DNA of 35,616 bases from assembly GCA_944385545.1 (NCBI GenBank), contig CALWXQ010000015.1, forward strand, positions 1 to 35,616, in the 5' to 3' direction. The stretch's first letter is position 1. Each line of letters opens with the position of its first letter. This DNA is from an uncultured Oscillospiraceae bacterium (GTDB lineage: Bacteria; Bacillota; Clostridia; Oscillospirales; Oscillospiraceae). The translations under genes were made by a program, and so were the position numbers. This document shows, piece after piece, positions 1 through 18,381 of the stretch. The notes below the pieces were generated by a model. It searched no databases. It was not told the DNA's origin and was given only the letters and a program-made list of their open reading frames with translations.

Positions 1-20
1 TCAGAGGTTATTCACAGTTT

Positions 21-86
21 TTATTTGGCACCCACTGTATAATGCGGTTTTTGGCATTTATGCGGTGTTGCCTTAAGTCCTTTCAT
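21..86 (-). CDS. possible 21-residue peptide ORF
   Basis: A short reading frame starts at ATG 86-84 on the minus strand. It has a good GGAGG ribosome binding site about 7 nt upstream and ends at TAA 23-21. The peptide (MKGLKATPHKC then QKPHYTVGAK) is basic with one Cys and no membrane segment. I recognise no family. It could be a real small protein, a leader of something left of the window, or chance. The ribosome binding site is the only support. Confidence 0.22.
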   Translation of the reverse strand: MKGLKATPHKCQKPHYTVGAK

Positions 87-132
87 ATCCAAGCCTCCAT
101 TCAAATTGCGATTTACCGCCATGTTATTCTAG

Positions 133-293
133 GGAAGCTCTGATGAAATCGGCAAGAGCTGATGCCGAGAGATTTTGACTCAGCCGAAAGTTCAAAAAGT
201 GGAGGAATACTGTATGTATTTCCCACTTTTTGAACTGCACGGATGGGGCAAAAGATCCGGCATTCAGCCAAAGACGATTTATTCAGAGATTCC
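133..293 (-). repeat. MITE-like palindromic element, copy 1 (161 bp)
   Basis: The element begins GGAAGCTCTGA and ends TCAGAGATTCC, flanked on both sides by CTAG (129-132 and 294-297), a candidate 4-bp target duplication. The centre folds into a long hairpin with arms containing GTTCAAAAAGTGG and CCACTTTTTGAAC. Its reverse complement matches the copy at 8219-8379 with only about 10 differences over 161 bp by hand alignment. It lies upstream of the GH85 promoter. Confidence 0.88.
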
Positions 294-441
294 CTAGCAC
301 AACATTGCGCGCTTCGCAATTATAAGGGAGGAAAAGAGGCGGCTGCGCGCCGGAAATCCGGGCATTGGATCGAAAACACCGGTTTTGAGAGATACGATCG
401 AAAAAACAAGAATATCTATGTAAACTGTACGGGAAAATGGG
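294..441. other. intergenic, no gene seen
   Basis: About 150 bp separate the repeat element from the GH85 promoter. One open frame runs out of the repeat into this stretch (243-464 plus) but has no ribosome binding site and no recognisable product. I see nothing else here. Confidence 0.5.
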
Positions 442-470
442 TTGAAATTTATTTGCTTTTGTGATATTAT
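442..470 (+). promoter_or_regulatory. sigma-A-type promoter of the GH85 gene
   Basis: TTGAAA at 442-447 and TATTAT at 465-470 are separated by 17 bp. The start codon follows about 60 nt later, and a small GGGAG/CTCCC hairpin (482-504) lies in the leader. Confidence 0.65.
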
Positions 471-531
471 ACATAATATCTGGGAGGGGATGCCTGCTCC
501 TCCCATTGTCATTACGAAAGGAGAACGATGG

Positions 532-3384
532 ATGAAGTTGATGAAGTTGATGAAGAAATCCCTTGCGCTGCTGCTGGTACTGGCAATGGTGGCTGCTTTG
601 GCAGCCTGCGGCGGCGCCCCCGCGGAAGAAACCCAGCCCACTCAGGAGGAAACGGTTCCTGTTCAGGAAACCGTTCCTGCCGCGCCCGTGATTTCCGTTA
701 CGGAGGAGAACACCTATACCAAGCCCCTGACCAATGTTCCCGAGGTGCCCTATTGGTTCCCTGCGGATTTGCTGAACTGGACGCCCAATGAAAACGGGAC
801 GGACATCTATAATGTCAGCAGCATTCCTTTGGCAAAGCGTGTTGACCGGGAGAAGCTGTCCACCGTCAACGCCACCCAGAACAAGGATGTGAAGGTCGTT
901 GCCATTTCCATTATGAACAGCAGCACCAGCGGCAACGCGCCCCACGGCCTGAACAGCGCCAATGCCAACATCTTTACTTACTGGCAGTATGTGGATACCC
1001 TGGTCTACTGGGGCGGCTCCTCCGGCGAGGGCCTCATCGTCACCCCCAGTGCCGACGTCATTGATGCCGGCCACAAGAACGGCGTCCCCGTGCTGGGCAC
1101 CGTGTTCTTCCCTCAGGCGGCCCATGGCGGCAAGATCGCGTGGCTGAACGACTTCCTGCAGAAGGACGACAACGGCGAATTCCCCATGGTGGATAAGCTC
1201 ATTGAGGTCGCCAACTACTTCGGCTTCGACGGCTGGTTCATCAATCAGGAGACCGAGGGCAGCGACAGCGATCCCGACGGCTTCCTGACCCAGGATCACG
1301 CGGTTCTGATGCAGGAATTCATCAAGGCCTATAAGGCAAAGGCCGGCGATGATCTGCAGCTGATGTGGTATGACTCCATGACCGTGGACGGGGAAATGGA
1401 CTGGCAGAACGCCTTGACTGATAAGAATAAGTTCTACGTTATCGGCGATAACCAGGAGGCTGTGGCCGATAGCATGTTCCTGAACTTCTGGTGGAACACC
1501 GAGGACTACGCCCCGGACGAACTGCTCAAGGCTTCCGCCGAGAAGGCCGCTGAGCTGGGCGTGGATCCGTATGATCTGTATGCCGGCATCGACGTCCAGG
1601 CAAACGGAACCAAGACAAACGTCCGCTGGAATCTGTACGCTCCTGAGGGACAGGCCCCTTACACCTCTCTGGGCCTGTACTGCCCCAGCTGGACATACTT
1701 CGCCGCCGAGGACTTCTTCACCGATTTCCAGGAGAAGGAAGGCCAGATGTGGGTCAATGAAAAAGGAGATCCCTTCGCGGACGTCACCGTGGAAACCGGC
1801 AAGTGGGCCGGTGTCTCCACCTACGCCGTGGAGAAGACCGTTGTGAACACCGTGCCCTTCATCACCAACTTCAGTCTGGGCAACGGCTATAACTTCTTTG
1901 TGGACGGGGAGAAGGTTTCCGCCAAGGACTGGAATAATCGCTCCTTGCAGGATGTGCTGCCCACCTATCGCTGGCATCTGGAGCAGGGTCAGGGCAACGG
2001 CCTGGAGGCTATTATGGACTATTCCGAGGCCTGGTACGGCGGCACCAGCCTGAAGCTGTACGGCAAGATGGCTGCCGGTCAGCCCACAACCCTGAAGCTT
2101 TATAGCTCCGATCTAGCCATCACCGAGGGCCTGTCCTGGACCATGAAGGCTAAGAGCAGCGTGGAAATGAATCTGGATCTGGTGGTCACCCTCTCCGACG
2201 GCAACATCCAAGTGATCCCCGGCGATCAGAGTGTGGGCGAGGCATGGACTACCGTTACCTTTGACATTTCCGGCCTGAGCGGCAAAACCGTTTCCGGCTT
2301 CGACATCCAGGTGACCTCCCCTGCGGATGTGTTTGGCATCAAGTTCTTCCTGGGCCAGATCGCCGTTACCGATCCGTCCGTGGAAACCCAGGCGGTGTCC
2401 GCCTCCGATCTGAAGGTGGACAGCACCAGCTTCGACGATGACGACTGCATCTACACCGGCGTCTGCCTGAGCTGGGCCGGCAATGCCGACCTGTACGAGA
2501 TCTACCGGATCAATCAGGACGGCTCCGTCTCCTTCCTGGACGCCACCCCCAGTACCGCGCTGTACATTAACGCCCTGGAGCGCAACGACGATACCAACAA
2601 GACCAACTTTAAGGTGGTTCCTGTGGATATCTACGGGAACCGGGGCACGGAATCCAACGTTGTGACCATGGATTGGCCTGACAACAGCCTGCCCAAGGCG
2701 GACTTCATGGCCTCCTCCACCCTGGTCGCCCCCGGCCAGGAGGTCACCTTCACCAGCCTGTGCTCCGCCAACACCGAGACGCTGACCTGGGAATTCCCCG
2801 GCGCCTCTGTGGAGACCAGCACCGACGTGGCCCCTGTGGTCAGCTACGCCGCGGAAGGCACCTATACCGTTAAGGTCACCGCCAAGAACGCCTCCGGCGA
2901 AGCTGTGGCCGAGAAGACGGATCTGATTACCGTTACCGCCAAGGTCACCGGCGATTTGGCCCTGCTCTCCGGCGGCAAGGATACCGAGGCTTCCGCTTAC
3001 GTCAACGAAAACGAGGCGCCTCCCTTCGCCGTGGATGGCGACTACAGCAAGAAGTGGTGCGCCACCGGTAACCCGCCCCACACCATCACCATTGATCTGG
3101 GCGATGCCAAGGCGGTGAGCCAGGTGAAGATCTTCCACGCCCAGGCAGGCGGAGAAAGCCCGGATATGAACACCAAGGCTTACACCATCCTGGTCAGTGA
3201 AGACGGTGAAACCTTCACCGAGGTGGTTAAGGTCACCAAGAACACCGACGGCGAGACCTCCAACACCTTCGCCGCTGTGAATGCCCGCTACGTACGGCTG
3301 GTGGTGGAGAAGCCCACCCAAGGCTCCGATACCGCCGCCCGGATCTACGAGGTGGAGGTCTATGGCCTGGACGAAGCCCTGTGA
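532..3384 (+). CDS. secreted lipoprotein endo-beta-N-acetylglucosaminidase (GH85) with PKD and discoidin domains
   Basis: A 950-residue exported enzyme. GH85 enzymes cut the GlcNAc-GlcNAc core of N-linked glycans, leaving one GlcNAc on the protein. The lipoprotein signal ends in LAAC with Cys26, so it should be anchored outside the membrane. The GH85 barrel covers about residues 72-390. The motif DGWFINQE supplies Asn238 and Glu240, matching the Asn/Glu catalytic pair of the family. Then come beta-sandwich and Fn3-like regions (about 400-720), a PKD domain (about 724-803) and an F5/8 type C/CBM32-like domain (about 807-950), probably for glycan or mucus binding. ATG 532 was chosen because AAAGGAG lies 8 nt upstream. 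The first 18 nt are two copies of ATGAAGTTG followed by ATGAAGAAA, so 541 or 550 could also serve. It appears monocistronic, with its own promoter and terminator. Confidence 0.87.
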   Translation: MKLMKLMKKSLALLLVLAMVAALAACGGAPAEETQPTQEETVPVQETVPAAPVISVTEENTYTKPLTNVPEVPYWFPADLLNWTPNENGTDIYNVSSIPLAKRVDREKLSTVNATQNKDVKVVAISIMNSSTSGNAPHGLNSANANIFTYWQYVDTLVYWGGSSGEGLIVTPSADVIDAGHKNGVPVLGTVFFPQAAHGGKIAWLNDFLQKDDNGEFPMVDKLIEVANYFGFDGWFINQETEGSDSDPDGFLTQDHAVLMQEFIKAYKAKAGDDLQLMWYDSMTVDGEMDWQNALTDKNKFYVIGDNQEAVADSMFLNFWWNTEDYAPDELLKASAEKAAELGVDPYDLYAGIDVQANGTKTNVRWNLYAPEGQAPYTSLGLYCPSWTYFAAEDFFTDFQEKEGQMWVNEKGDPFADVTVETGKWAGVSTYAVEKTVVNTVPFITNFSLGNGYNFFVDGEKVSAKDWNNRSLQDVLPTYRWHLEQGQGNGLEAIMDYSEAWYGGTSLKLYGKMAAGQPTTLKLYSSDLAITEGLSWTMKAKSSVEMNLDLVVTLSDGNIQVIPGDQSVGEAWTTVTFDISGLSGKTVSGFDIQVTSPADVFGIKFFLGQIAVTDPSVETQAVSASDLKVDSTSFDDDDCIYTGVCLSWAGNADLYEIYRINQDGSVSFLDATPSTALYINALERNDDTNKTNFKVVPVDIYGNRGTESNVVTMDWPDNSLPKADFMASSTLVAPGQEVTFTSLCSANTETLTWEFPGASVETSTDVAPVVSYAAEGTYTVKVTAKNASGEAVAEKTDLITVTAKVTGDLALLSGGKDTEASAYVNENEAPPFAVDGDYSKKWCATGNPPHTITIDLGDAKAVSQVKIFHAQAGGESPDMNTKAYTILVSEDGETFTEVVKVTKNTDGETSNTFAAVNARYVRLVVEKPTQGSDTAARIYEVEVYGLDEAL

Positions 3385-3413
3385 TCCGTTTGACCATCCT
3401 CCCTGCTGACACT

Positions 3414-3450
3414 AAAAATGCCGAACTTCCCCCGGGAAGTTCGGCATTTT
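3414..3450. terminator. bidirectional terminator after GH85
   Basis: A perfect 17-bp inverted repeat (3415-3431 and 3434-3450) with an A-tract on one side and a T-tract on the other. It lies 30 nt after the GH85 stop and can serve both strands, so it also backs up the convergent hsp20 gene. Confidence 0.88.
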
Positions 3451-3491
3451 CCCTGTAAGAACCCTTGCGCGCCGGGCCAACAACGAAGGAT

Positions 3492-3517
3492 TCCCGGGAT
3501 CCATTGGGATCCCGGGA
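3492..3517. repeat. perfect hairpin between GH85 and hsp20
   Basis: TCCCGGGATCC, loop ATTG, then GGATCCCGGGA, a perfect 11-bp stem just beyond the hsp20 stop codon. There is no T-run on either side, so it is not a classical terminator. It may stabilise the hsp20 mRNA 3' end. Confidence 0.5.
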
Positions 3518-3537
3518 GTATGCTTCGGACAGGGGCG

Positions 3538-3990
3538 TTATTGGATTTCGATGCGGCGGGCTGCCGGTTGAAGGGGTACCTTTTTGGGCAGGGTCAGCTT
3601 CAGCACGCCGTTTTCATAGCTGGCGCGGATGCCATCGGCGTTAATGCCGGTAATGTCATAGCTGCGGCGATAGGTGCCGTAGGAGCGCTCCACTCGTACC
3701 ACCTTGTCCTTTTCCTTGTGCTCTACGTTGGAATGGCGCTGGGCGCTGACGGTCAGGGTGTTGCCGTTCAGATCCAGGTGAATGTCTTCCTTGGCAAAGC
3801 CGGGCAGATCCGCCTCCAGAAGGAAGCTGTCGCCCTCGTCGGTGATATCGGTTTTGAACTCCGCCAGATCGGCCATGCGGAAGAAGTCGTCATAGGACGG
3901 GCCGAAGAAGCGGCGCTGCAGCTCCTCCATTTCCCGGAAGGGATTGTAGCGATCCATGGGATGATTCGTGCTTCGGGTAAGTTCAAACAT
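3538..3990 (-). CDS. small heat-shock protein, Hsp20/alpha-crystallin family
   Basis: A 150-residue ATP-independent chaperone that holds unfolding proteins in the cytoplasm. The alpha-crystallin domain covers about residues 40-140. It has the typical segments EADLPGFAKEDI, LTVSAQR, YRRSYDI, and ENGVLKLTLPK close to the C-terminus. The N-terminus (FNPF-like PFREMEELQRRFF) is also typical. A GGAGGC ribosome binding site lies 7 nt before ATG 3990. The CIRCE operator at 4296-4322 is about 305 nt upstream, and the repeat element at 4059-4217 sits between. This suggests HrcA control through an unusually long leader. Confidence 0.93.
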   Translation of the reverse strand: MFELTRSTNHPMDRYNPFREMEELQRRFFGPSYDDFFRMADLAEFKTDITDEGDSFLLEADLPGFAKEDIHLDLNGNTLTVSAQRHSNVEHKEKDKVVRVERSYGTYRRSYDITGINADGIRASYENGVLKLTLPKKVPLQPAARRIEIQ

Positions 3991-4058
3991 AACAATGCCT
4001 CCATTTTTTGCGTGGGCCCCTCCCAGCTTGACGGGTGCTGATCTTCAGGGCGCTCTTG

Positions 4059-4217
4059 GGAAGCTCTGAATCAATCGTCCGCGGCTGAGTACCCAATCGG
4101 TTTCCTTATCCGTTTCGTTCAAAAAATGGGAAACCCATACAGGATTCTCCTCTTTTTGAAGTTCGGATGGGGCGAAACCGTTGGACGTCAGAACTTGCCG
4201 ATTTCATCAGAGGCTAC
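4059..4217 (+). repeat. MITE-like palindromic element, copy 2 (159 bp)
   Basis: It begins GGAAGCTCTGA, ends TCAGAGGCTAC, and is flanked by CTTG on both sides (4055-4058 and 4218-4221). It keeps the GGGAAA...CATACAGGATTC core, with GTTCAAAAA/TTTTTGAAG arms less perfectly paired than in copies 1 and 4. It lies between hsp20 and its likely operator. Confidence 0.82.
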
Positions 4218-4295
4218 CTTGTTTTTCTTTTCTAAGAATACTGTACCCGGAAAAATCCAATATTGTGTGGCAAAATTGTAAACGGTCTGTTAATT

Positions 4296-4322
4296 TTAGC
4301 ACTCTCGTGAATAGAGTGCTAA
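4296..4322. promoter_or_regulatory. CIRCE operator (HrcA binding site)
   Basis: TTAGCACTC, 9 nt, GAGTGCTAA: an exact match to the CIRCE consensus. HrcA represses heat-shock genes at this site. On the minus strand it heads the hsp20 leader, preceded by a weak TTGTCA -35-like box. On the plus strand it lies 19 bp upstream of the -35 box of the DUF3793-flavodoxin promoter, a poor place for repression. So hsp20 is the likelier target. Confidence 0.92.
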
Positions 4323-4341
4323 AAGTGTCGCCAAAAAAGAC

Positions 4342-4370
4342 TTGACAAATCGGGGGCAGTCTGGTATACT
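4342..4370 (+). promoter_or_regulatory. strong promoter of the DUF3793-flavodoxin pair
   Basis: TTGACA (4342-4347), 17-bp spacer, TATACT (4365-4370). It sits just upstream of two palindromic operators. Confidence 0.85.
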
Positions 4371-4374
4371 TCGG

Positions 4375-4429
4375 TTAGTTAGCGCATGCTAACTTTTTAA
4401 GCAACCAAAAGTTAGCATACGCTAACTAA
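4375..4429. promoter_or_regulatory. paired palindromic operators, probably metal (iron) responsive
   Basis: Two sites of the form GTTAGC-N4-GCTAAC lie at 4378-4393 and 4411-4426, immediately downstream of the -10 box. Together they form a 23-bp inverted repeat (4375-4397 and 4407-4429) with one mismatch and a 9-nt spacer. The half-sites resemble the TTAG/CTAA half-sites of DtxR/IdeR/MntR regulators. An iron-sparing flavodoxin downstream fits an iron-dependent repressor. The identity of the regulator is inference. Confidence 0.65.
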
Positions 4430-4467
4430 AAATATCGGGGAAACTAATGTACAAGTGAGGTGAACGT

Positions 4468-5019
4468 ATGTCAGATCGATTGCTGGTGGAGCACTGCTCG
4501 CCCACGCTGGCGGGGTTAAAAACCGGGAGTCTGTTTACAGCCTCCTTTGCCAGTGAGGAACGGATGCGGGACAGTTTGCGAAGGCTGAACCGGCTGCTGG
4601 GGAAGAAGGGACTGCGGGTGATCTCTCTGCGCTACCGCAACGGGCGTGGGCTGATTTACGTGTACCGGCCCTGCCGCTTACGGGAGGATCTTCAGAAGGA
4701 AACGGCGAAAATCCTCCTGGAGGACTGCGGCTACTGCCGCGATTCCGCCGCCGGGTGCATCGCCGGCCTGATTAAACGGCTGAGCACCGGGGAAGACTTC
4801 CCCCATGAGATCGGCTTGTTTCTGGGCTACCCGGCGGAGGACGTGGCGGGCTTTATCCGCAATGGGGCGCACAACTGCAAATGCAGCGGCGTCTGGAAGG
4901 TGTACACCGATGTGGAAGCCGCCCAGAGACAGTTTGCCCTATACCGCCGCTGTACCAAGGCCTACCGGGCGCAGTGGGAAAAAGGAACGGATATTGAGCG
5001 GCTGACCGTGGCCGGTTGA
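4468..5019 (+). CDS. DUF3793 family protein
   Basis: A 183-residue cytoplasmic protein of unknown biochemical role, recognised as DUF3793 from the pattern HEIGLFLGYPAEDVAGFI, then HNCKCSGVWKVY, then FALYRRCTKAYRAQW. It is Cys-rich (CGYCRDSAAGC, CKC), which would suit metal or redox chemistry, but no function is proven. ATG 4468 follows a GAGGTG ribosome binding site. It is the first gene of a pair with flavodoxin (35-nt gap), behind a strong promoter with tandem GTTAGC-N4-GCTAAC operators. This suggests both are induced under the same metal-limiting condition. Confidence 0.82.
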   Translation: MSDRLLVEHCSPTLAGLKTGSLFTASFASEERMRDSLRRLNRLLGKKGLRVISLRYRNGRGLIYVYRPCRLREDLQKETAKILLEDCGYCRDSAAGCIAGLIKRLSTGEDFPHEIGLFLGYPAEDVAGFIRNGAHNCKCSGVWKVYTDVEAAQRQFALYRRCTKAYRAQWEKGTDIERLTVAG

Positions 5020-5054
5020 TATAAAATACAATGCAAAAGAAAGGTTGATAGGTT

Positions 5055-5477
5055 ATGCGTAAAATCGCCATCGTATATTGGAGCGGCACTGGCAATACCC
5101 AGACCATGGCGGAGGCTGTGGCCGACGGGGTCAAAGAGGCGGGCGGTGAGGCCAGGATATTCACCGCAACGGAATTTACGTCCTCCCAAATGGACGCGTT
5201 TGACGCGGTGGCCTTCGGCTGCCCCTCCATGGGAGCCGAGCAGCTGGAAGAAAATGAATTTGAACCCATGTTCCTGGACTGTGAGAGCAAGCTCTCCGGC
5301 AAGCGGATCGCCTTGTTCGGCTCCTACGGCTGGGGCCACGGGGAATGGATGCGCACCTGGGAGCAGACCTGCCGGGATGACGGGGCGATCCTGGTCTGCG
5401 ACAGCGTGATCTGCCATGAGGCGCCGGACGCAGAAGGGGAAACGGCCTGCAAAGCCCTGGGAGCGGCCCTGGTCTGA
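5055..5477 (+). CDS. flavodoxin
   Basis: A 140-residue FMN-binding electron carrier of the short-chain flavodoxin type, able to replace ferredoxin when iron is scarce. The phosphate-binding loop SGTGNT is at about residues 10-15 (YWSGTGNTQTMAEAV). Other flavodoxin segments are AVAFGCPSMGAEQLEE and ALFGSYGWGHGEWM, whose Tyr/Trp residues would stack on the flavin. An AGAAAGG ribosome binding site lies upstream of ATG 5055. It is the second gene after DUF3793, and a strong hairpin terminator follows 22 nt after its stop. Confidence 0.94.
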   Translation: MRKIAIVYWSGTGNTQTMAEAVADGVKEAGGEARIFTATEFTSSQMDAFDAVAFGCPSMGAEQLEENEFEPMFLDCESKLSGKRIALFGSYGWGHGEWMRTWEQTCRDDGAILVCDSVICHEAPDAEGETACKALGAALV

Positions 5478-5498
5478 GGAAGTTCCCGAAAAGCAGCC

Positions 5499-5537
5499 GC
5501 AAAATGCCGTTCTACCGGGAGTAGAGCGGCATTTTGC
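5499..5537 (+). terminator. terminator of the flavodoxin operon
   Basis: A 17-bp stem (one G-U pair) made by 5499-5515 and 5521-5537, with loop CGGGA and a closing AAAA/TTTT segment. Confidence 0.83.
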
Positions 5538-5577
5538 CATTGGTAGAGATTGGATTGCCGGGGAGGCGGCGGATTCC

Positions 5578-5606
5578 TTGACTTGGCAACGGGAATATGG
5601 TACAAC
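5578..5606 (+). promoter_or_regulatory. possible promoter upstream of the acyltransferase-like gene
   Basis: TTGACT (5578-5583), 17 bp, TACAAC (5601-5606). The repeat element copy 3 begins 8 nt after the -10 box, so it would be transcribed as part of the 5' leader. Confidence 0.45.
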
Positions 5607-5613
5607 TAACAGG

Positions 5614-5774
5614 AGAACCTGTTATGAAATCGCCTGCGGTTTAGAGCGAAACCGTTTGCTCCGTTCGTGCAGCTGAAAAAGAGGGAAATCCATACAGGAT
5701 TCCTCCATTGCTTGCAGGTTCGGCTGGGCCAATATCTCCCGGCGTCAGCTCTTGCCGATTGAATCGGAGGTTCC
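5614..5774 (+). repeat. MITE-like palindromic element, copy 3 (161 bp, diverged)
   Basis: It begins AGAACCTGTTATGAAATCG and ends CGGAGGTTCC. The flanks CAGG (5610-5613) and CAAG (5775-5778) look like a decayed 4-bp duplication. The conserved centre GGGAAATCCATACAGG is kept, but the central arms no longer pair well. This is an older copy, lying between a promoter and the next gene. Confidence 0.72.
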
Positions 5775-5837
5775 CAAGTGCGGGCGGCGGTACCGGCGGC
5801 CCGGAAACAGATCCTTTTCAAGCAAGGAGGTTTGCCT

Positions 5838-7136
5838 GTGACCTTTACGAAGGATCCTTCCAAAGAAAAAGCCCGTCTGCGGTGGCTCCCGTTGGATAAC
5901 GCGGCGAAAATCTACCCCGCGGCCAGGAGCAAGACCTGGAGCAATGTCTTCCGCCTGTCCGCCACCTTGACCCAACCGGTGGATCGGGCGGTGCTGGAGG
6001 AGGCGCTGGAGGCTGTGATCGGACGATTTCCTGCCATCTGCGCCCGTCTGCGCCGGGGCTGCTTCTGGTATTACTTACAGCAGATTGAGCATAGCCCGCA
6101 GATCCGGGAGGAATACAGCTATCCTCTGGTCAGAATGCCCGCGGCGGAGGTTCGCCGGTGTGCCTTTCGAGTGATCGTGTATCAAAACCGCATCGCTTTG
6201 GAATTCTTTCACGCCCTCACCGACGGCAACGGGGCTTTGGTGTTTCTCAAAACGCTGCTGGCGGAGTATCTGCGGCGCAGGTACGGCATTGCCGTTCCCG
6301 CGGAGCAGGGCGTTTTGGATCCTGCCCAGGAGCCGCTGGCGGAGGAACTGGAGGACAGCTTCCAGAAATACGCCGGTTCCCGGCGCGCCGGGCGGAAGGG
6401 AACGGACGCCTACCGGATCACCGGAACCAGGGAGACAGGGGGACTGCGTCACCTGACCTGTCTGGAGCTGCCGGTGGAGCAGACACTCCAAAAGGCACAC
6501 GAATACGGCGTCAGCCTGACTGCCTTTCTCTGCGCCGCCACCATGATGGCCATTCAGAATATCCAGGAGGAGCAGACGGCCCACCGGTGTCATCACCGTC
6601 CGGTGAAGGTGCTCCTGCCTGTGAATCTGCGCAAGCTGTTTCCCAGCGCCTCCTTGCGCAATTTTGTTCTCTACACCATCCCGGAGATCGATCCCCGGCT
6701 GGGGCGCTACAGCTTTCCGGAGATTTGTCGGGCAGTCCGCCACCGGATGGGTCTGGAGTTGGAGCCGAAGTTCATGAGCACTGTGATCGCTGCCAACGTC
6801 GCTGGCGAGCGGATCTTCGCGGTGAAGATCATGCCCTTGTTTCTCAAAAACCTGGTGATGAAAGCGGTGTTCCGCCGGGTGGGGGAACGGAAATCCTGCC
6901 TGAGTCTGTCCAACCTGGGGACGGTGCAGATGCCCGATGTCATGAAGCCCTACATCTCCAGGCTGGACTTTGTTCTGGGGATCCAGGCTACCGGCGCGTA
7001 TAACTGCGGCGTTGTGAGCTGGGGAGATACCCTGTATCTGAATTTGACCCGAAACATCCGGGAGCCGAAGCTGGAATACCACCTCAGCCAGGTCTTGCAG
7101 GAACTCGGCTTGAAGCCTCTGGTTCGGAGCAATTAA
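5838..7136 (+). CDS. condensation-domain/alcohol acetyltransferase-like protein
   Basis: A 432-residue protein of the CoA-dependent acyltransferase (condensation) fold. HALTDG gives His125 and Asp129-Gly130 of the HxxxDG motif that catalyses acyl transfer in this superfamily. The C-terminal half has LSNLGTVQMP and LNLTRN-type segments seen in this group. The substrate is unknown. GTG 5838 is preferred because AAGGAGG lies 7 nt upstream; an ATG-like start at 5778 has no such site and would overlap the repeat flank. The next gene, a zinc-ribbon membrane protein, starts 10 nt after the stop, so the two probably act together, perhaps in modifying a lipid or cell-surface alcohol. That role is inference. 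Confidence 0.72.
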   Translation: MTFTKDPSKEKARLRWLPLDNAAKIYPAARSKTWSNVFRLSATLTQPVDRAVLEEALEAVIGRFPAICARLRRGCFWYYLQQIEHSPQIREEYSYPLVRMPAAEVRRCAFRVIVYQNRIALEFFHALTDGNGALVFLKTLLAEYLRRRYGIAVPAEQGVLDPAQEPLAEELEDSFQKYAGSRRAGRKGTDAYRITGTRETGGLRHLTCLELPVEQTLQKAHEYGVSLTAFLCAATMMAIQNIQEEQTAHRCHHRPVKVLLPVNLRKLFPSASLRNFVLYTIPEIDPRLGRYSFPEICRAVRHRMGLELEPKFMSTVIAANVAGERIFAVKIMPLFLKNLVMKAVFRRVGERKSCLSLSNLGTVQMPDVMKPYISRLDFVLGIQATGAYNCGVVSWGDTLYLNLTRNIREPKLEYHLSQVLQELGLKPLVRSN

Positions 7137-7146
7137 GGAGGAGCCT

Positions 7147-7842
7147 ATGTATTGTGCCAATTGCGGCGTAAAGCTGGGGGAGGCGGAACAGGTCTGCCCC
7201 CTGTGCGCCACGCCGGCGTTTCACCCTGCGATCCCCCGGCCCGCCGGGGAGAAACAATATCCCCGGGATGTGTACCCGCCACAGCCGGAGCGGCCCCTGG
7301 CGGCCCAGATCGTGTCCACAGCCCTGTTCCTGCTGCCGATGCTTATCACTCTGCTGTGCGACTGGCAGATCAGTGGCAGAGTCACCTGGTCGGGCTATGT
7401 GGTGGGGGCGTTGCTGGTGGTCTATCTGGGAATGGTGCTGCCGTTCTGGTTTTCCAAGCCTCAGCCTATGATTTTCCTGCCACTCTGGTTCGCGGGAGTG
7501 GCGGCGTATCTTTGCTACATTGCCGCCTCCACCGGAGGCGATTGGTTTGTGCCCTTTGCCCTGCCGCTGACGGGGGTTCTGGGGCTGCTGTTCACAGCGC
7601 TGGTAGCCCTGCTGCGCCGGTTCCCCAAGGGACGGCTCCTGATTTGCGGCGGCGCGTTCGCCATGCTGGGCGGATACCTGACACTGCTGGAATGGCTGAT
7701 CTGGGCCGTATTCCGCCATCACCGGTTCATTGGCTGGTCCTTCTACCCTCTGATCGCGCTGCTCCTGCTGGGAGGGACTGTAGCGGCTTTATCCCTGAAC
7801 CGGGAAACCCGGGAAGCTATGGAGCGCAAGTTCTTTTTATAA
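7147..7842 (+). CDS. zinc-ribbon membrane protein (DUF6320-like)
   Basis: A 231-residue protein. Its N-terminus is a zinc ribbon with Cys3, Cys6, Cys17 and Cys20 (CANC and CPLC). A proline-rich linker follows, then about six hydrophobic helices from residue 57 onward (for example VSTALFLLPMLITLLC and FALPLTGVLGLLFTALVALL). It resembles DUF6320 proteins that sit beside acyltransferase-like genes in Clostridia. A ribosome binding site, AAGGAGG, overlaps the upstream stop codon, so the pair is translationally close. Function is unknown; it may anchor or partner the acyltransferase-like protein. Confidence 0.75.
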   Translation: MYCANCGVKLGEAEQVCPLCATPAFHPAIPRPAGEKQYPRDVYPPQPERPLAAQIVSTALFLLPMLITLLCDWQISGRVTWSGYVVGALLVVYLGMVLPFWFSKPQPMIFLPLWFAGVAAYLCYIAASTGGDWFVPFALPLTGVLGLLFTALVALLRRFPKGRLLICGGAFAMLGGYLTLLEWLIWAVFRHHRFIGWSFYPLIALLLLGGTVAALSLNRETREAMERKFFL

Positions 7843-7864
7843 CCCGGAAAAATGCTTTCCGATC

Positions 7865-7904
7865 AAAATCGCAGCCCACGCCAATGGCGAGGCTGCGATT
7901 TTTC
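7865..7904 (+). terminator. terminator after the zinc-ribbon gene
   Basis: AAAATCGCAGCC (7865-7876) pairs with GGCTGCGATTTT (7891-7902), followed by more T. It also faces the decayed minus-strand SLOG gene. Confidence 0.82.
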
Positions 7905-7933
7905 TGCATGGTGGAGACAGGGAGGACAGTGAT

Positions 7934-8536
7934 TCATCTGCTTGGCTGGTTTGGATACAGAAGGATTGTTTTCTTTTTCTTCTTGGCATACTGGAGGGTT
8001 TTTGCCGCGCCTCCCCACCCGTGTGTCACATAGGCAACAACCACATCGGCTACATCGGCCATCCACTGGTTTCGTTTAACAATAGCGTACCTGGGCGGTA
8101 CGGTTTCCAGGGGAGGATAGGCAGTAGAATCAAAAAAATCGGTGTTTATAGGGCGATTCAGATAGGCCAATACCAGGATCCGTTGGATTTGCGGATAAGA
8201 TTTTTTCAGCTTTGTTAAGGAACCTCTGAATAAATCGTCTTCGGCTGAATGCCGGATCTTTTGCCCCATCCGTACAGTTCAAAAAGTGGGAAATACATAC
8301 AGTATTCCTCCACTTTTTGAACTTTCGGCTGTGCCAAAATCTCTCGACATCAGCTCTTGTCGATTTAGTCAGAGGTTCCTTAAAACAGAAGCGGCGATGC
8401 TGTCAAATTCTCCATAACTGCCAAGATAAAAATGTGTGGCACCCTGTGCGATCAGGGCGTTGTTTACTGCCCACAGCCATGCCGCCGCCGCATCCGGATC
8501 ATCCACTTGTGCGTGTCCGCAAAATGTTACGTTCAT
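7934..8536 (-). pseudogene. SLOG-family (DUF1273/YoqJ-like) gene split by a repeat element
   Basis: The 5' part starts at ATG 8536 (GAGGT upstream) and encodes about 52 residues, MNVTFCGH through SIAASVL. It then enters the repeat at 8379 and stops in the terminal repeat (CTC TGA). The 3' part resumes at 8217 with TKLKKSYPQIQ and ends at 7934. Removing 8219-8379 plus one TTAA copy gives an unbroken frame of 145 codons (SVL-TKLKK). The rebuilt protein has GSYGEFDSIA, the YPPLE segment, RNQWMADVADVVVAYV and GGAAKTLQYA, as in SLOG/DUF1273 Rossmann-like proteins that bind nucleotide-derived ligands. These genes are common in phages and mobile regions. Each half also reads a few codons of repeat sequence. 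Confidence 0.85.
8219..8379 (+). repeat. MITE-like palindromic element, copy 4 (161 bp), inserted in a gene
   Basis: It begins GGAACCTCTGA and ends TCAGAGGTTCC, a perfect 11-bp terminal inverted repeat. TTAA flanks both sides (8215-8218 and 8380-8383). The centre forms a long hairpin, with GTTCAAAAAGTGG paired to CCACTTTTTGAAC. The host gene reading frame is restored exactly when the element and one TTAA are removed, which fixes the element ends. Confidence 0.93.
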
Positions 8537-18304: not shown

Positions 18305-18381
18305 GGGAGCTCTGAATCAATCGCCCGCGGCTGAGCCAAAATCTCTCGGCATTCGCCCTTGCCGATTTCATCAGAGCTTCC
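18305..18381 (+). repeat. MITE-like element, copy 5 (77-bp internal deletion form)
   Basis: It begins GGGAGCTCTGA and ends TCAGAGCTTCC, and both end regions match the full-length copies (GAATCAATCGCCCGCGGCTGA; CTTGCCGATTTCATCAGAG), but the central hairpin is missing. Flanks are TTTG (18301-18304) and TTCG (18382-18385), one mismatch apart. It lies 11 bp beyond the stop codon of the hybrid kinase. Confidence 0.82.

What the first reader, a model, noticed from the sequence alone, without database searches (positions are those of the whole stretch)
133..8379. A family of ~160-bp palindromic MITE-like elements with 4-bp target duplications
Four near full-length copies (133-293, 4059-4217, 5614-5774, 8219-8379; 159-161 bp) share 11-bp terminal inverted repeats (GGAACCTCTGA type), a central hairpin and the core GGGAAA..CATACAG.ATTC. 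Copy 1 is inverted relative to the rest. Flanks are CTAG/CTAG, CTTG/CTTG, TTAA/TTAA and CAGG/CAAG. Copies 1 and 4 differ at about 10 of 161 positions, so spread was recent. No transposase is in the window, as expected of a non-autonomous element. I know no named family that fits.
Basis: seen in the sequence. Interest (0 to 1): 0.78.

Follow-up and report, generated by a model that had tools for sequence, protein, structure and literature searches.

The report
Hairpin mini-transposon with exchangeable ends
A bacterium carries about a hundred copies of a short folded DNA element that seems to jump with another element's enzyme, and in related species the same folded middle appears with a second, different pair of ends that fits a second jumping enzyme.

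Summary
In detail: four 159-161-bp copies plus a fifth deleted to 77 bp. The genome has 251 matching ends against 3 for the reversed pattern. It is a true MITE: 67 of 115 copies have an exact 4-bp duplication (shuffled mean 13.7), 50 of 67 being YTAR. Relative G015 has two empty sites, one exact to the base. The donor type is an IS5-family (NF033581) element with the same ends.

The unexpected part lies outside the window. In other species of the genus the same ~130-nt hairpin core carries different ends, GGCAACACCGCACA, matching a second IS5-family element (transposase 48% identical) whose last 72 bp open this window. Ends match by family (0.845/0.814 within, 0.53 across); cores are 72% alike on average, 83% at best. 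The hairpin is kept by two-sided changes (41 of 62 pairs). The core tree places the second type twice among the first, but one origin is not rejected (AU p 0.159). I read this as one hairpin lineage that changed its caps, and so its transposase. Movement in trans and any function of the core are not shown.

The parts
1..72 (+). Right end of IS-B, the second IS5-family insertion sequence (cap ...TGCGGTGTTGCC); the contig begins inside it
   Evidence: 72 of 72 bases identical to the right end of the IS-B in L081
73..76 (.). TTAA next to IS-B, candidate target duplication (other side not in the contig)
   Evidence: sequence
129..132 (.). CTAG target duplication, left of copy 1
133..293 (-). MITE copy 1, family A, 161 bp
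294..297 (.). CTAG target duplication, right of copy 1
4055..4058 (.). CTTG target duplication, left of copy 2
4059..4217 (+). MITE copy 2, family A, 159 bp, about 75% identical to copy 4
4218..4221 (.). CTTG target duplication, right of copy 2
5614..5774 (+). MITE copy 3, degenerate, flanks CAGG/CAAG
8215..8218 (.). TTAA target duplication, left of copy 4
8219..8379 (+). MITE copy 4, family A, 161 bp; 8 further identical copies in the genome
8219..8235 (+). Left cap (terminal 17 bp) of copy 4
   Evidence: boundary from the longest core-only matches, query positions 18-148
8236..8366 (+). Hairpin core of copy 4, the part shared with family B
8367..8379 (+). Right cap (terminal 13 bp by the same matches) of copy 4
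8380..8383 (.). TTAA target duplication, right of copy 4
18305..18381 (+). Fifth copy, 77 bp, middle of the core deleted, both ends kept; flanks TTTG/TTCG

Best explanation
The repeat is a non-autonomous mini-transposon (MITE) with two separable parts. Caps of about 13-17 bp at each end are the sites of an IS5-family DDE transposase supplied in trans; insertion goes mostly into YTAR sites and leaves 4-bp duplications. Between them is a ~130-nt palindromic core that is inherited as one lineage across the genus. Family A (this window) has GGAACCTCTGA caps, fitting IS-A. Family B, in other species, has GGCAACACCGCACA caps, fitting IS-B. The core lineage therefore changed its caps, and so its transposase, at least once. 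Shown: ends, duplications, empty sites, donor elements with matching ends, a shared core with different caps, arm-to-arm covariation. Inferred: mobilisation in trans by these transposases, and the route. A likely route is recombination between neighbouring A and B copies, followed by copying of one arm onto the other (hairpin template switching), which would repair a half-changed element and would also keep the arms matched.
For: Duplications: 67 of 115 family A copies, shuffled mean 13.7, max 23; 50 of 67 are YTAR. Family B: 31 of 43, shuffled mean 5.6, max 11. Empty sites: a PFL-like gene split at C47 is uninterrupted in G015 with exactly 161+4 bp missing, CTGG standing for CTAG; the copy 4 site is also empty in G015, 70% identity, with 48 bp aligned beyond the junction. 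IS-A: 1224 bp in L160 with GGAACCTCTGA ends; NF033581 at 314.6 bits, cut-off 140; 16 of 31 IS-A-type relatives with both ends found (of 40 examined, of 80 loci kept) have exact 4-bp duplications (my count). IS-B: NF033581 at 352.8 bits, ends. Caps, first 16 bases: MITE-A to IS-A 0.845, to IS-B 0.529; MITE-B to IS-A 0.527, to IS-B 0.814 (9 IS-A, 4 IS-B). Core: B to A mean 0.72, best 0.83; A to A 0.82; terminal parts B to A 0.56. Covariation: 41 of 62 pairs changed on both sides, 229 cells against 69.1 shuffled, 0 of 500; 1537 of 1711 cells pair in B under a structure taken from an A copy. Core tree: 2 changes of cap, 0 of 200 bootstrap trees with 1. A and B stand side by side sharing CTAA in L373.
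Against: The own genome (85% complete, 106 contigs) shows no IS-A transposase at E 1e-12 with the N-terminal 99 residues; its one DDE_Tnp_1 hit sits at a contig edge without these ends (L094). G151, which holds the complete IS-A, has no detectable MITE, and 15 of the 20 genomes searched for having an IS-A-type transposase have none. Only 6 of 136 genus genomes have an IS-A-type match at 72% or more over at least 75 residues, the query's own included. The genomes richest in family B (G032, G108, G155, G152, G126) show no IS-B-like match. One origin of B is not rejected (AU p 0.159; the bootstrap had not settled; starred branches force only 1 change). No true hybrid with one A and one B cap was found: one pattern hit in the loci held, which I judge an A variant. 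Beyond the caps IS-A and MITE share little: 1 of 21 IS 3' regions beat its 300 shuffles.
Confidence: 0.8

Rival explanations
1. Joint descent without exchange: families A and B split when the two IS5-family transposases split, each cap drifting with its enzyme while a constrained core stayed alike.
For: One origin of B is not rejected (AU p 0.159); both caps begin GG and both transposases are in one NCBIfam family.
Against: The transposases are only 48% identical while cores reach 83% nucleotide identity. The core tree interleaves the labels: 2 changes in the best tree, 0 of 200 bootstrap trees with 1.
Confidence: 0.15
2. The core is a functional RNA or regulatory hairpin (for example an RNase III site or terminator) kept by selection because it makes insertions tolerable or useful, and the transposons are its vehicles.
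For: Whole-length covariation; a majority apical loop CATACAG with several nearly invariant bases; copies of the own genome lie mostly outside genes (24 of 59 inside an ORF of 120 aa or more, control 80%).
Against: G-T pairs are not in excess on the strand tested (92 against 128 A-C); only a mild lean to the other strand, which folds better in 55 of 59. No Rfam match at the gathering score for the copies in the window. No expression data.
Confidence: 0.25
3. The two-sided changes come from hairpin template switching during replication, not from selection; the core has no function.
For: Two-sided changes are 8 times more frequent than expected already between copies 3-6% apart (48 against 5.9), including A-T to C-G changes with no wobble step. 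The process is described for E. coli (PMC7202029, abstract start seen) and proposed for RNA stems (PMC8794818, passages read).
Against: Copies under 3% apart show no two-sided change (0, expected 0.1). Row pairs are not independent. It does not explain why the core lasts across caps.
Confidence: 0.4
4. A REPIN or other non-DDE repeat family moved by a RAYT or HUH enzyme.
For: Palindromic, high copy, mostly outside genes.
Against: Exact 4-bp duplications, caps shared with IS5-family elements. That REPINs make no duplication is recalled.
Confidence: 0.02

Closest known systems
Bacterial MITEs derived from insertion sequences (Correia, Chunjie, QMITE in PMC10969869: passages and section 5 read; NEMIS and Nezha recalled)
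   Same: Under 500 bp, inverted ends, short duplications, no gene, many copies, stem-loop
   Different: Here one core occurs with two cap types that fit two different transposases; I found no such case in the open-access library searched
IS5-family insertion sequences (NCBIfam NF033581)
   Same: Ends, and the YTAR 4-bp target that is known for IS5 (PMC10359306, passages read)
   Different: The MITE has no transposase; only the caps are clearly shared, the core is not
Silkworm MITE families (PMC2997013, passages read)
   Same: Miniature inverted-repeat elements sorted by ends and internal sequence
   Different: Four of those families share ends with unlike interiors; here the interior is shared and the ends differ

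Membership tests
Bacterial MITE | Short, no transposase gene | tested here: met
   159-161 bp in the window
Bacterial MITE | Inverted terminal repeats shared with an autonomous element | tested here: met
Bacterial MITE | Target duplication of constant length | tested here: met
   4 bp, 67 of 115 exact; lengths 2, 3 and 5 near chance
Bacterial MITE | High copy number and sites that differ between relatives | tested here: met
Bacterial MITE | Moved in trans by the autonomous element's transposase | not testable with these tools
   needs an experiment
IS5-family donor (IS-A, IS-B) | Transposase over the NCBIfam cut-off | tested here: met
   314.6 and 352.8 bits, cut-off 140
IS5-family donor (IS-A, IS-B) | 4-bp duplication, YTAR | tested here: met
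   16 of 31 IS-A-type loci exact, 14 of the 16 YTAR and two CTAT; IS-B 2 of 4 exact, both TTAG
REPIN/RAYT | No target duplication, Y1 transposase (recalled) | tested here: not met
   4-bp duplications present; the Y1 enzyme was not searched for

The most novel reading that the evidence does not exclude
A self-maintaining DNA hairpin is the real unit of inheritance. It has changed its terminal caps at least twice, switching between two IS5-family transposases. Its full-length palindrome makes this possible, because copying one arm onto the other turns a half-changed element into a matched one and also keeps the stem paired.
Probability: 0.4. Interest if true: 0.75.

Novelty: new variant of a known kind. 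Interest (0 to 1): 0.6.

Why it matters
MITEs are usually seen as derivatives that depend on one parent transposon and decay once it is gone. A core lineage that swaps caps would be a parasite able to change its enzyme source. That would explain how such elements outlive their parents, and it gives a natural, testable case of hairpin template switching acting over a whole element.

Tried and rejected
Transposase hunt by family: PF01609 (21 of 61 genus genomes), PF05598 (26 of 121), PF13546 (2 of 121). Of the 60 loci fetched by these, one (L151) had the family A end at 3 mismatches or fewer, and it gave the lead. Longer elements of 308, 309 and 578 bp in the own genome carry a second module, not a transposase. 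Contig C90 has a lone cap on unrelated DNA. Core in plasmids and phages: no match; one exact core match in viral contigs. IS 3' regions as source of the core: only L174 of 21 beat its 300 shuffles, the best of 21 tries, so not relied on. RNA sense-strand selection: not supported by the G-T count. RNAalifold on A1 gave only 25 pairs, energy -4.79; the 62-pair structure that I counted comes from the fold of one copy. An argument that I dropped on checking: deleted elements of 111, 97 and 80 bp carry exact duplications, but they may have lost their middle after insertion, so they do not show that the core is unnecessary; I lowered the RNA rival from 0.30 to 0.25, since this had been counted for it.

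Rows: one search kept a few wrongly delimited rows (L262, L109, L121 and a second row of L004) and one duplicated region (L014, L016) in the 115. One search dropped the wrongly delimited, the identical and those outside 157-164 bp to reach 85; one search kept 59 of 85 (under 95% identity to each other). Family B sets keep one misdelimited row (L325). The orientation of B copies can be flipped; the tree script re-oriented them. The final tree left out L031, window copy 2, as a long branch, and collapsed 3 B cores identical to others; with L031 in, the count was also 2 changes. first compared the window with IS-B out of register (17-24 of 75); one search is the corrected comparison.

Full report
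Observation. The 161-bp copy at 8219-8379 is present in 9 identical places in its own genome, itself included, and in many more at 90-99% (40 of 115 candidates scored). A block of copies shares one and the same 94% score, the mark of a second recently spread subfamily. The terminal pattern, up to 3 mismatches, occurs 124 times forward and 127 reverse against 2 and 1 for the reversed control in 2.03 Mb: by inference roughly 125 elements, shortened ones included. A fifth, 77-bp copy lies at 18305-18381. The whole element folds on itself: -41.5 kcal/mol as DNA, z -10.5, 0 of 200 shuffles.

Mobility. Of 115 distinct copies with flanks from this genome and its genus, 67 have an exact 4-bp duplication against a shuffled-partner mean of 13.7 (max 23). 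Matches of 2, 3 or 5 bp are near chance. CTAA 28, CTAG 10, TTAA 9 and TTAG 3 make 50 of 67 YTAR. Empty sites: the copy at C47:7315-7475 splits a pyruvate-formate-lyase-like gene. The left piece matches PF02901 positions 167-420 and the right piece 425-639. In G015 the same stretch is uninterrupted, 87% identical, and lacks exactly the element plus one 4-bp copy (CTGG there, CTAG here). The site of window copy 4 is also empty in G015, at 70% identity, with only 48 bp aligned past the junction. Of 59 copies of the own genome tested, 24 lie inside an ORF of 120 aa or more, against 80% of random points.

Distribution. The 161-bp copy finds matches in 24 of 37 genomes of the genus (own included; several of them single weak hits) and weakly in 1 of 23 others of the order. 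An exact pattern with both ends at the right spacing occurs in 27 of 136 genus genomes, its reversed control in none of the rows.

Donor. No IS-A transposase was found in the own genome. In G151 a complete 1224-bp element (L160, 647-1870, IS-A) has ends GGAACCTCTGAATAAATAG and GGAACCTCTGATTAA, flanks TTAG/CTAG, and a 327-aa transposase. It is NCBIfam NF033581, IS5 family, 314.6 bits against a cut-off of 140, with DUF772 and DDE_Tnp_1. A scan of named genomes confirmed 111 places and kept 80, among them Oscillibacter and other Oscillospiraceae. Of 40 that I examined, 31 had both ends, and 16 of these an exact 4-bp duplication (my count from the rows); the nearer ones have GGAA-CTCTGA ends, the more distant mostly a C-to-G or C-to-A variant of it. 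IS5 itself uses YTAR (PMC10359306, passages). Against a simple pairing: G151 has no detectable MITE.

The second cap. When I searched the MITE in 20 genomes holding IS-A-type transposases (5 of 20 matched), G032 and G005 gave dozens of hits covering only query positions 35-128 or 18-148: the core without its ends. Fetching 20 such places showed elements in which the core is bounded by GGCAACACCGCACAATTG and its complement, with 4-bp duplications in 17 of 19. With further copies the count is 31 of 43, against a shuffled mean of 5.6, max 11; 39 of 43 are 161-162 bp long. These caps fit another IS5-family element, IS-B: 1127-1150 bp in L079, L081, L136 and L080, NF033581 at 352.8 bits, transposase 48% identical to that of IS-A over 314 residues. 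The first 72 bases of this window are 72 of 72 identical to the right end of the IS-B in L081. The cap pattern, up to 2 mismatches, occurs in 37 of 136 genomes, the reversed control in none of the rows. It is abundant in G032 (60+59), G108 (49+44), G155 (30+26), G152 (26+27) and G126 (24+26); the own genome has 1. Some single hits are IS-B ends or chance. Those five rich genomes show no IS-B-like match.

Caps and core part ways. Over the first 16 bases, MITE-A ends match IS-A at 0.845 and IS-B at 0.529; MITE-B ends match IS-A at 0.527 and IS-B at 0.814; IS-A against IS-B is 0.508. Cores of B and A are 0.72 identical on average and up to 0.83, against 0.82 within A and 0.79 within B, while the terminal parts are 0.56. 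On a tree of 121 cores the cap label needs 2 changes (34 when shuffled), and 0 of 200 bootstrap trees have 1, though the bootstrap had not settled. Holding B together costs 19.7 log units, but AU p is 0.159, so one origin is not rejected. A and B elements stand side by side sharing CTAA in G004 (L373).

The stem. In 59 distinct family A copies, 89.2% of cells pair; 41 of 62 pairs have a two-sided change; 229 cells have one, against 69.1 shuffled, 0 of 500; sliding the partner by 1-3 columns gives 30-57. Relatedness inflates shuffle tests, and a structure taken from one copy favours itself against slid versions. Under the same structure, B cores, which had no part in it, pair in 1537 of 1711 cells (89.8%), slid 35-51%. 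Two-sided changes exceed independence 8-fold already between copies 3-6% apart, but are absent under 3%, where 0.1 was expected. G-T pairs are fewer than A-C pairs on the strand used (92 against 128), and the opposite strand folds better in 55 of 59: a mild lean to one transcript strand at most. Whether the core is needed for movement is open: deleted elements with duplications exist, but may have been deleted after insertion.

Mechanism. Shown: the ends, duplications, empty sites, two cap types on one core, two donor-type elements with matching ends, paired evolution of the arms. Inferred: mobilisation in trans, and cap exchange by recombination between neighbouring copies followed by arm-to-arm copying. 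Template switching between inverted-repeat arms is described (PMC7202029 and PMC8604942, abstract starts seen; PMC8794818, passages read). I found no report of one MITE core with two cap types in the open-access library searched; subscription papers are not held.

Limits. Most genomes are draft assemblies, which tend to lose multi-copy transposons (established knowledge).

Noticed in passing
window 1-72: The contig opens inside an IS5-family element (IS-B). About 63 bp in from its right end IS-B carries AACCTCTGAAT, a stretch of the family A cap (window 1-9 is its complement in part); seen in L079 and L081, with one change in L136, not in L080.
   Followed up: partly
L109:1704-2011, L110:4269-4577, L121:1463-2040: Compound elements of 308, 309 and 578 bp in the own genome: a MITE with a second ~150-bp module set in one arm.
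   Followed up: partly
L073, L074, L077 (G025, G029, G016): Copies of the core with ends GTAACCGCTGA or near it, perhaps a third cap; no exact duplication, and no such end in the 80 IS loci by exact pattern.
   Followed up: partly
copies: In element orientation the exact duplication is CTAA 28 times but TTAG only 3, suggesting oriented insertion.
   Followed up: no
window 4296-4322: TTAGCACTC-N9-GAGTGCTAA, the CIRCE heat-shock operator motif (recalled, not tested), lies beyond MITE copy 2 from the hsp20 gene (3541-3990), so the insertion may separate operator and gene.
   Followed up: no
window 4374-4430: A long inverted repeat around GTTAGC..GCTAAC upstream of a DUF3793 gene, possibly an operator.
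   Followed up: no
L383:2247-2407 (IMGVR_UViG_3300010262_000234): A family A type copy right after a TAA triplet that looks like a stop codon, in a contig filed as viral.
   Followed up: partly
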